From positions 1 to 24,685 of the forward strand of contig KZ992639.1 in the NCBI GenBank assembly GCA_003614735.1: DNA of 24,685 nt, read 5' to 3'. Source of the DNA: Thamnocephalis sphaerospora (lineage: Eukaryota > Zoopagomycota > Zoopagomycetes > Zoopagales > Sigmoideomycetaceae). A model generated the notes under the pieces. It made no database searches. It saw nothing but the letters and a program-made list of their open reading frames with translations, and was not told the DNA's origin. Made by a program: the position numbers and the translations under genes. Shown piece after piece: positions 21,469 through 23,412 of the stretch (its first letter is position 1; the number at the start of each line of letters is the position of its first letter).

Positions 21469-23412
21469 CTGCTGTTGCGGACTTTGTTGCAGTGAGCCCC
21501 GCAGCTGCTGATAAGCTGCATCCTGTAGCAGCGGCGGATTTGTCGCCTGCAATGTACTCAAACCAGCTGTCTTTCCCTGCAACGCAGCAAGCAGCTGCGC
21601 GTTGGCCGATGCACCAGTCGTCGCCGCCGTCGCCAAAGTACCCAGCGATTGTGGTAGCACTGTAGCAGCACCAGACCCCATTGACTCAGCGTACGGCGAC
21701 ACGGCATGAGCATTATGCTGATGCGCCGGACTGCCCGTAGGCGCTGCACCAGGTGTCGCAGTGCCAGTCCCTGTCTCCGCTAGCCGTAACAGTGCACGCG
21801 TTGTGTCTTCGCCGGATGATGCATGCGTAGGAGTTCCGCCGACGCTAGCCAGACCGAGTGTAGCAGCTGGCTGGCTCGAATGCGGCGCAGAAAGGCCAGC
21901 AGCGCCGGCAGTACCAAGTGACGATACACCCAGTAAAGAACGAAGCAAATGCGATGCGTCGTTGCTGACCGATTGATCTGGGACCTCGTGGCTACCGCTC
22001 ACAGACACGCTACTGTCTACGATAGCATTTGGTGGTAGCGACTTTTCCAACTCTGCACCATGCTGATGGACATTGCCAACTTCTGCCTGATATCGACTGC
22101 GATTGCGCCGATGTTCCTTCCGACCATTGTTTGGCCGCGCTCGTTGTGGCTGCGACTGCAAGTAGCCAGTTGCATCGGCGCCTCCATGCGGTGCCGGGGT
22201 CGTCTCTCGGCTCGGAATGCCTACACCAAGACCGAGCTGTGCCAGCTGCGCCATGGTCTGCGAGACCGCCGAAGCAGCCGCGGCACTAGCTGCAGAGTTA
22301 CGCCGAGATGTCGGCGCACTAGGACCACCACCAGCGCCATGGCGTCGCCGCTCAATCCAGCGCCGTAGATCGCTGCCACACCATGTCAGTAGCAGCCGGT
22401 AATAAAAACCATCAATAGGCCCACGTACTTTACAAAGGGAATCACCATGTAGAAACGGTTGCGGTTGCTGTTGCTGTTGTTGGCGTTATTCTGCACGGCT
22501 GCTACAGCGCCATTGGTGTCACGCTTCACACGGTAGGTCGGCAAATCCACCAAGCGGCACCACGAAATTTTGCTGATTTCCTTGCGGGTTTGCGGATTAA
22601 ATGGCGTGTCCTCAGAAATGCCAGCAATGATAAATAGACGAATGTGCTGTTCGCGTATTGTGCGCTCCAAAAACGCCTCCTCGTCCACAAACGGCGTAAC
22701 ATCGAATCCAGTTTCCTCGTACACCTGCATTTCCCATTTGCCAGGCGACACGTCGGTTAGCTCAGCAAATGGAGCTGTCGCAGTGGCTCAAGCCTACCTC
22801 GCGAGCTGCACATGTGGCATACTCTTCGTCCTTGTTAATTTTACCACGTGGAAAACCCCAGCCGGCACGCGAATTCCAGCCCTTCACCAGCAGGCACTTG
22901 TCCAGCGTCTCATTCAAAATGATGGCGCCACAGACTGGTACGCGAAACTTGTACGTCAAAAAATCGCCGTATGCCCTTTCGTGCTCATCTGCCCAATGCT
23001 GTAGCAGAGGACAGTGGCGGAAGAGTATAGACAACCAGATAACCACAAGACCAAAGTGCGAGTTAAAGATGCAAACAGCAGGTTACGCGCGCGCGCACAC
23101 CCGCCACTGTGACAAGTCGAGAAGGATATTCTTTGCCGAAAACTGCTTCAGCGAGAAGCTGGGCAAAGCTGGATTCTGCTCGCGGATAAAGTCTTCATAG
23201 TACCAGTGTGCCTGCTCGACCTGAAAGCAAATGCGCTCCACCGAGGCTAGTTCCTCCTCCGGCACGTTGATGATGAAGCGACTACCAGCCAACGGATGCA
23301 AAGGAAGCGCGATGAGCGACTGCCGCCGCTGCCAGCGCTAGGGTCGTCGCAGGCGCCTTTACCTGGACAGGTCGTCCAGCACCTCCTCAAACGTGGCGGT
23401 GGCGAACGCCAT
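21067..23412 (-). CDS. DCP2: mRNA-decapping enzyme Dcp2 (Nudix hydrolase), 5 exons, one with an AT-AC intron
   Basis: Exons on the minus strand: 23412-23363, 23281-23130, 23024-22798, 22724-22429, 22372-21067. The sum is 2031 nt, a 676-aa protein. Residues 1-95 are the Dcp1-binding Box A domain (MAFATATFEEVLDDLS, FIINVPEEELASVERICF, HWYYEDFIR). The Nudix domain spans about 96-240, with a complete Nudix box at 128-150 (GKINKD, then REVYEETGF) split by the third intron, and Box B ends in FYMVIPF and LRRWIE. Dcp2 cleaves m7GDP from mRNA in P-bodies. The long C-terminal tail is disordered, carries a 17-residue polyQ (541-557) and several Leu-rich short motifs (HLLRSLLG, ALLRLAE, QLLAALQG, SLLAVL, ALLDML) like the helical motifs that bind Edc3 or Pat1. 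Introns 1, 3 and 4 are GT-AG (81, 73, 56 nt); intron 2 (23129-23025) is AT-AC, described separately. Confidence 0.95.
21427..21477 (-). repeat. Polyglutamine tract of Dcp2 (17 Gln)
   Basis: An uninterrupted run of 17 glutamines is encoded by a mixture of CAA and CAG codons, which reduces slippage compared with a pure repeat and suggests selection for the peptide rather than for the DNA. A second, Asn/Ser-rich low-complexity stretch lies in exon 4 near 22459-22489. Confidence 0.85.
23025..23129 (-). other. Probable U12-type (AT-AC) intron in DCP2
   Basis: The intron starts ATATCCTT, an exact match to the U12-type 5' splice site, directly after the codons for FSAK. It ends in TCTATAC just before the codons for FRHCPLLQHW. 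It is 105 nt, contains an in-frame TAA, and its removal yields FSAK-I-FRHCPLL, the expected Dcp2 sequence. A TCTTTAAC at 23069-23062 differs by one base from the U12 branch consensus TCCTTAAC, but is 38 nt from the 3' end, further than usual. There is no AG on the minus strand between about 23104 and 23000, so no ordinary GT-AG intron can keep the conserved CPLL motif. Confidence 0.72.

What the first reader, a model, noticed from the sequence alone, without database searches (positions are those of the whole stretch)
23025..23129. AT-AC (U12-type) intron interrupting DCP2 between FSAK and FRHCPLL
Exon 2 ends in FSAK and exon 3 begins in the conserved FRHCPLLQHW block; an in-frame TAA lies between. 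No AG exists on the sense strand where a normal acceptor would be needed. The only junction that restores the family sequence starts ATATCCTT (exact U12 5' splice consensus) and ends AC, with matching phase. Seen directly: the splice-site strings, the phase and the lack of AG. Known: RTATCCTT marks U12 introns, and minor spliceosomes are lost from most Dikarya but kept in some early-diverging fungi. Inferred: this organism has a minor spliceosome, and DCP2, an mRNA decay enzyme, depends on it. The branch-like TCTTTAAC is further (38 nt) from the acceptor than usual.
Basis: partly seen in the sequence, partly recalled or inferred. Interest (0 to 1): 0.85.

Follow-up and report, generated by a model that had tools for sequence, protein, structure and literature searches.

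The report
Minor-class intron in fungal decapping gene
A fungus that lives on other fungi carries, inside its gene for an mRNA-decapping enzyme, a rare kind of intron that needs a second splicing machine; protein records suggest the same intron sits at the same spot in many early-branching fungi and is often misread in databases.

Summary
The window is a contig of Thamnocephalis sphaerospora (Zoopagales). In DCP2 (minus strand) the 105-nt segment 23129-23025 must be removed. Of 2824 in-frame junctions, ATATCCTT...AC scores 428.8 bits against a DCP2 profile; the best GT/GC-AG junction scores 398.9. The genome holds U6atac and U11. RTATCCTTTT occurs 73 times against 25 for the reversed control; 29 of 71 distinct sites have CTTRAC 30-120 nt downstream against 1-2 of 71 in control windows. 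Ten of 20 spliced models show homology across the junction. U12 and U4atac snRNAs were not found. New here: 13 of 232 DCP2 homologues show NIL or YIL at exactly this junction, as reading into A|ATATCCTT or T|ATATCCTT would give; N or Y agrees with the residue (I or F) of the nearest clean homologue in 13 of 13. This implies a phase-1 AT-AC intron shared by Mucoromycota and Zoopagomycota and often misannotated. Branch-to-acceptor spacing is long (median 26.5 nt in ten supported introns; DCP2 39).

The parts
23025..23129 (-). U12-type AT-AC intron of DCP2, 105 nt, phase 1
23122..23129 (-). 5' splice site ATATCCTT
23062..23069 (-). branch-like TCTTTAAC, second A 39 positions before the first exon base
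23025..23026 (-). 3' splice site AC
23083..23085 (-). in-frame TAA met if the intron is retained
23363..23412 (-). DCP2 exon 1
23282..23362 (-). intron 1, GT-AG, 81 nt
23130..23281 (-). DCP2 exon 2, ends FSAK + A
22798..23024 (-). DCP2 exon 3, starts (I)FRHCPLLQHW
22725..22797 (-). intron 3, GT-AG, 73 nt
22429..22724 (-). DCP2 exon 4 (end of the Nudix domain)
22373..22428 (-). intron 4, GT-AG, 56 nt
   Evidence: agrees with FVNDLRRWIERRR in P0018
21067..22372 (-). DCP2 exon 5, low-complexity C-terminal tail and stop

Best explanation
The segment is a genuine minor-class (U12-type) AT-AC spliceosomal intron in DCP2 of Thamnocephalis sphaerospora. Shown by sequence: the segment must be removed to give a normal DCP2; it begins with the exact U12-type 5' splice site, has a near-consensus branch motif and ends AC; the same genome encodes U11 and U6atac and has more introns of the class. 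Inferred, with the pairing scheme recalled from the known mechanism: U11 pairs with CCUU, U12 with the branch motif, then U6atac (AAGGA) replaces U11 at UCCUU, and the minor spliceosome joins 23130 to 23024. Retention would give a stop after 15 intron-coded residues and no Nudix domain, so DCP2 production would depend on minor splicing. Read-through residues in other fungi's deposited proteins imply that the intron is old and shared at the same position and phase across Mucoromycota and Zoopagomycota.
For: Exhaustive splice scan: 428.8 against 398.9 bits. Gap-free alignment to solved S. pombe Dcp2. U6atac 38 bits with a TATA-like element and T-run; U11 58.9 bits. Genome-wide RTATCCTTTT 73 against 25 reversed-control hits; CTTRAC downstream in 29 of 71 distinct sites against 1, 2 and 2 of 71 in three control windows. 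Of 20 spliced models, nine have a Pfam match above the curated cut-off spanning the junction and one more matches CDKs in the PDB; two of these ten are AT-AC (HECT, CDK). In DCP2, NIL or YIL follows the K/R at this junction in 13 of 232 homologues, and the letter matches the single nearest clean homologue's I or F in 13 of 13.
Against: No transcript data. Branch-to-acceptor spacing of 39 is far from the 11-13 nt optimum given in a review passage and beyond the 17-33 nt of the ten supported introns. Position +9 is C, whereas the 5' sites searched elsewhere had T there. U12 snRNA and U4atac were not found, nor CENATAC. The other ten of the 20 spliced models lack tool support above cut-off. The NIL/YIL inference uses proteins only, from capped lists; no relative's DNA was seen, and the closest full-length relative (S. 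fuscata, P0241) is regular at the junction.
Confidence: 0.96

Rival explanations
1. A major-class GT-AG intron removes 23100-22999 or a similar stretch, giving a DCP2 with an altered helical domain.
For: An AG exists at 23000-22999 and GT at 23100. The deposited S. pseudoplumigaleata model joins ...ICFQ to HWADEHE, which would use the equivalent AG.
Against: 29.9 bits worse than AT-AC. It loses the IFRHCPLLQ block; 205 of 232 homologues keep a block of the regular length. The S. pseudoplumigaleata model also lacks the 30 residues before that block (compare), as a gene-finder error would.
Confidence: 0.02
2. The gene is a pseudogene or the contig carries an assembly error, with no real splicing here.
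For: A passage of PMC6784888 lists this species among those sequenced from single cells; that this assembly comes from there, and that amplification errors can occur, is inference. No T. sphaerospora DCP2 record was among the 120 listed in either search.
Against: One PF05026 hit in the genome. The other exons are open and a 676-aa frame results. The three other introns are GT-AG. A chance U12 5' splice site at the forced junction is very unlikely (inference), and protein records of relatives point to the same junction.
Confidence: 0.01
3. The intron has AT-AC ends but is removed by the major spliceosome.
For: Terminal dinucleotides alone do not define the class (review passage). The branch motif is one base off the recalled consensus and unusually far from the 3' end.
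Against: The full ATATCCTT 5' site and a CTTRAC-like branch motif, together with U11 and U6atac in the genome.
Confidence: 0.02

Closest known systems
U12-type AT-AC introns of animals and plants
   Same: ATATCCTT start, CTTAAC-like branch motif, AC end; U11 and U6atac present in the genome
   Different: Branch-to-acceptor spacing 39 nt here (median 26.5 in ten other supported introns) against the 11-13 nt optimum in a review passage (PMC3584512); the commonest branch motif at the sites sampled is CCTTGAC (19 of 71)
Minor introns of Basidiobolus meristosporus (249) and Rhizophagus irregularis (205), Larue and Roy 2023, PMC10639083 (passages)
   Same: Early-branching fungi with a sizeable minor-intron set; two B. 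meristosporus Dcp2 records carry NIL at the same junction
   Different: Syncephalis, Thamnocephalis, Piptocephalis, Zoopagales, DCP2 and decapping do not occur in its main text; its supplements, which may list more species, were not open to me. It infers pronounced minor-intron loss in the Zoopagomycota ancestor
U12 introns of Rhizopus oryzae and Phycomyces blakesleeanus, PMC2846911 (passages and section 11)
   Same: Fungal AT-AC and GT-AG minor introns with U12-type snRNAs
   Different: Few introns were reported and the section read does not name their fungal host genes; DCP2 and decapping do not occur in the main text

Membership tests
U12-type (minor) intron | 5' splice site RTATCCTT | tested here: met
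   ATATCCTT exact; the rule is stated in PMC2846911
U12-type (minor) intron | Branch site close to TTCCTTRAC (consensus recalled) | tested here: met
   TCTTTAAC, one change from TCCTTAAC. A near match, not exact
U12-type (minor) intron | AT-AC or GT-AG termini | tested here: met
   AT-AC
U12-type (minor) intron | Branch-to-acceptor spacing near 11-13 nt (typical optimum, not defining: the review passage names the 5' site and branch sequence as the defining features) | tested here: not met
   39 nt; ten supported introns of this genome 17-33, median 26.5
U12-type (minor) intron | No distinct polypyrimidine tract | tested here: inconclusive
   The last 38 nt are T-rich with interspersed G; read only, no score
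U12-type (minor) intron | Minor-specific snRNAs in the genome | tested here: inconclusive
   U6atac and U11 found; U12 and U4atac not found
U12-type (minor) intron | Minor-spliceosome proteins (65K, 31K, 48K, CENATAC) | tested here: inconclusive
   Only CENATAC (PF14968) searched: no hit, and no control genome rang either; the others were not searched
U12-type (minor) intron | Removal shown in RNA | not testable with these tools
   No reads or cDNA available
DCP2 decapping enzyme | Box A (PF05026) and Nudix domains in one frame after splicing | tested here: met
   PF05026 in the genome DNA; full-length match of the spliced protein to solved Dcp2 and to DCP2 records carrying PF05026 and PF00293

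The most novel reading that the evidence does not exclude
The DCP2 AT-AC intron has been kept at one position since before Mucoromycota and Zoopagomycota split, tying mRNA decapping to minor splicing across early-branching land fungi. In the Zoopagales the minor spliceosome also works with branch-to-acceptor distances about twice the animal optimum, which would mean a changed way of finding the 3' splice site.
Probability: 0.5. Interest if true: 0.65.

Novelty: new member of a known kind. Interest (0 to 1): 0.55.

Why it matters
It places minor introns and at least two minor snRNAs in the Zoopagales. Searches for Thamnocephalis with intron and for minor spliceosome with Zoopagales returned no paper, and the lineage lies in a phylum for which one survey infers pronounced early loss of minor introns. 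It offers an explanation for a set of odd DCP2 records in public databases and a simple way, from protein sequences alone, to date a minor intron and find misannotated ones. If the long spacing holds, these fungi offer a natural test of how the minor spliceosome picks its 3' splice site.

Tried and rejected
U12 snRNA: the Rfam model found nothing at E 1e-3 or E 10. A recalled human-like core with up to 3 mismatches gave 5 hits against 6 for its control, and an Rfam scan of the five loci found no U12. A looser core gave 57 hits against 50 for its control; four of the 57 keep GTAAGGA intact and were fetched, and none had an Sm-like site by my pattern or a U12 match in Rfam. A longer stretch around the best-scoring hit was fetched (C460) but not analysed further. 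U4atac: no Rfam hit at E 10. My first pattern only found the antisense strand of U6atac itself, a design error. A second gave 20 hits against 36 for the control, two of which were fetched without support. CENATAC: nothing, with no positive control. The U11 fold energy is not distinctive (z -1.08), so U11 rests on the covariance score.

Weak spots in the intron set. 73 sites became 71 after dropping two with identical flanks. A strict branch pattern plus open frames kept 27 of 71. By hand, from the wider listing, I chose 20 for protein tests, so the 20 are a selected sample. Nine had a Pfam match above cut-off spanning the junction (L010, L056, L044, L041, L035, L071, L023, L063; L040; L041 passes the junction by only 3 residues and L040 by 5). 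L012 had no Pfam match but matched CDKs in the PDB. Of the other ten, six had spanning Pfam matches below the curated cut-off (L033, L060, L014, L020, L074, L082), three had none (L043, L028, L062), and L066 had none at first and then only a weak one away from the junction. L066 looks to me like CLPTM1, L033 like CPSF30/Yth1 and L074 like UBL5, from recall only. The 13-intron spacing table (13-39, median 27) includes four such cases (L066, L033, L014, L074); the ten-intron figure leaves them out and adds L040 (d=25).

DCP2 homologues: the 232 are the distinct proteins of two capped lists of 120 (of 760 and 2085 found). 27 of 232 do not have the standard 18 residues at the junction: 13 are NIL/YIL; six skip to HCPLL or HWADE (P0018, P0039, P0103, P0104, P0114, P0318); eight differ otherwise (P0033, P0045, P0074, P0075, P0078, P0105, P0281, P0284). 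Considered and rejected: GT-AG splicing, pseudogene, contig error.

Full report
What the window is. A window protein (Ca2+/H+ exchanger-like, 19303-20634) matches a Thamnocephalis sphaerospora record at 97% over its full length, and the contig given for that record is 24,685 bases, the length of the window. I conclude that the organism is T. sphaerospora, in the order Zoopagales. A passage of PMC6784888 lists it among the mycoparasitic species sequenced by single-cell methods. The assembly searched has 14,455,036 bases in 594 contigs.

The gene. DCP2 lies on the minus strand in five exons: 23412-23363, 23281-23130, 23024-22798, 22724-22429 and 22372-21067 (stop included), coding for 676 aa. 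Three introns are GT-AG (81, 73 and 56 nt). The spliced N-terminal part aligns without a gap at the junction in question to solved S. pombe Dcp2. The genome has one PF05026 hit.

The junction. I built a profile from 107 DCP2 homologues (the 120 less 13 irregular at the junction) and scored every open donor x acceptor pair around the junction: 2824 pairs. The AT-AC junction scores 428.8 bits. The only higher scores, 429.1 twice, are the same 105-nt segment slid by one or two bases, with AA...TA or GA...AT ends. The best of 20 GT/GC-AG pairs scores 398.9. Read through, the intron gives FSAKNILLDLSQWRVCARA and a stop.

The machinery. U6atac: 38 bits against a gathering score of 33, full length, on C139, with TATAAATA about 31 nt upstream of GTGTTG and a T-run at the 3' end. 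U11: 58.9 bits against 39 on C89, with an AUCAAGA loop and an Sm-like AAUUUUU. U12 and U4atac were not found by Rfam or by patterns, nor CENATAC by Pfam. The control genomes named in these searches are prokaryotes, so a miss is weak evidence of absence, and the assembly may be incomplete.

Other minor introns. RTATCCTTTT occurs 73 times; the reversed pattern 25 times. Two sites with identical flanks were dropped, leaving 71. CTTRAC lies 30-120 nt downstream in 29 of 71, against 1 of 71 upstream and 2 of 71 in each of two windows further down; CCTTGAC accounts for 19 of 71. I spliced 20 candidates chosen by hand. Nine gave a Pfam match above the curated cut-off that spans the junction and a tenth matched CDKs in the PDB across the junction; the deaminase model also matched ADAT2 structures. 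Two of the ten, HECT and CDK, start AT and end AC; the other eight are GT-AG. The other ten of the 20 have matches below cut-off or none. DCP2's own site (ATATCCTTCT) is outside the searched 10-mer, so the total is probably higher than this sample shows.

Spacing. In the ten supported introns the distance from the branch A to the first exon base is 17, 19, 21, 25, 26, 27, 28, 29, 29 and 33; for the SNF2 intron (33) a second motif at 8 is possible. A review passage gives 11-13 nt as the optimum (PMC3584512). DCP2's 39 is thus an extension of a tendency in this sample. A further AT-AC candidate, recalled as CLPTM1, also has 39, but its homology was not confirmed by a tool.

Relatives. In 13 of 232 homologues, the distinct proteins of two capped lists, the residues directly after the K or R at this junction are NIL or YIL, followed by an insert or a damaged block. 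NIL is what A|ATATCCTT reads as (AAT ATC CTT); YIL is what T|ATATCCTT reads as (TAT ATC CTT). The seven NIL cases are S. plumigaleata, Radiomyces spectabilis, Cokeromyces recurvatus, Basidiobolus ranarum, B. meristosporus (two) and Lichtheimia ornata; the single nearest clean homologue of each has Ile there. The six YIL cases are Mortierella antarctica, Actinomortierella ambigua, A. wolfii, Funneliformis mosseae, Entrophospora sp. and Acaulospora morrowiae; the nearest clean homologue of each has Phe. For some cases the next-nearest homologues are mixed, for example Phe after Ile for S. plumigaleata. Six more records lack the end of exon 2 or more (S. pseudoplumigaleata, Rhizophagus diaphanus, R. 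irregularis, Rhizopus arrhizus, Rhizopus microsporus, Parasitella parasitica). This fits gene finders that do not allow AT-AC introns. It is a protein-level inference; no relative's DNA was read. Records that are regular at the junction, such as S. fuscata (P0241), may have lost the intron or be correctly annotated. Neither search listed a T. sphaerospora DCP2 among its best 120.

Literature. Larue and Roy 2023 (PMC10639083; passages only) report 249 minor introns in Basidiobolus meristosporus and 205 in Rhizophagus irregularis, and infer pronounced loss in the Zoopagomycota ancestor. Syncephalis, Thamnocephalis, Piptocephalis, Zoopagales, DCP2 and decapping do not occur in its main text; its supplements were not open to me and may cover this species. 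PMC2846911 (passages and section 11) reports few such introns in Rhizopus and Phycomyces; DCP2 and decapping do not occur in it. Searches: minor introns with DCP2 gave one review, seen as a listing; Syncephalis with intron gave three papers, of which PMC7466969 has no match for minor intron, U12 or spliceosom and the other two were seen as listings; Rhizopus U12 decapping intron gave none; Zoopagomycota with minor introns gave only Larue and Roy; Thamnocephalis with intron none; U12-type decapping fungi two, seen as listings; minor spliceosome with Zoopagales none. Nothing seen there reports this intron. The library lacks most subscription journals.

Verdict. A real U12-type AT-AC intron, ordinary in mechanism, in a lineage not reported in what I could search, apparently ancient at this position and widely misannotated.

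Noticed in passing
window 23971-24053 (-): tRNA-Ser (anticodon AGA) just upstream of DCP2 on the same strand.
   Followed up: no
L002 1501-1656 (-), G000 C139:12974-13129: U6atac gene with TATAAATA about 31 nt upstream and a T-run, like a Pol III type 3 gene.
   Followed up: partly
L010-L082: In ten supported minor introns of this genome the branch-to-acceptor distance is 17-33 nt, and CCTTGAC is the commonest branch motif.
   Followed up: partly
P0001, P0012, P0014, P0016, P0019, P0028, P0267-P0269, P0275, P0300, P0304, P0310: Deposited DCP2 proteins with NIL or YIL apparently read into a minor intron: a protein-only way to spot misannotated AT-AC introns.
   Followed up: yes
window 2519-3727 (-): Open frame resembling a subtilisin-type protease (recalled from the sequence, not searched).
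   Followed up: no
window 21067-22372 (-): Long glutamine run in the DCP2 C-terminal tail.
   Followed up: no
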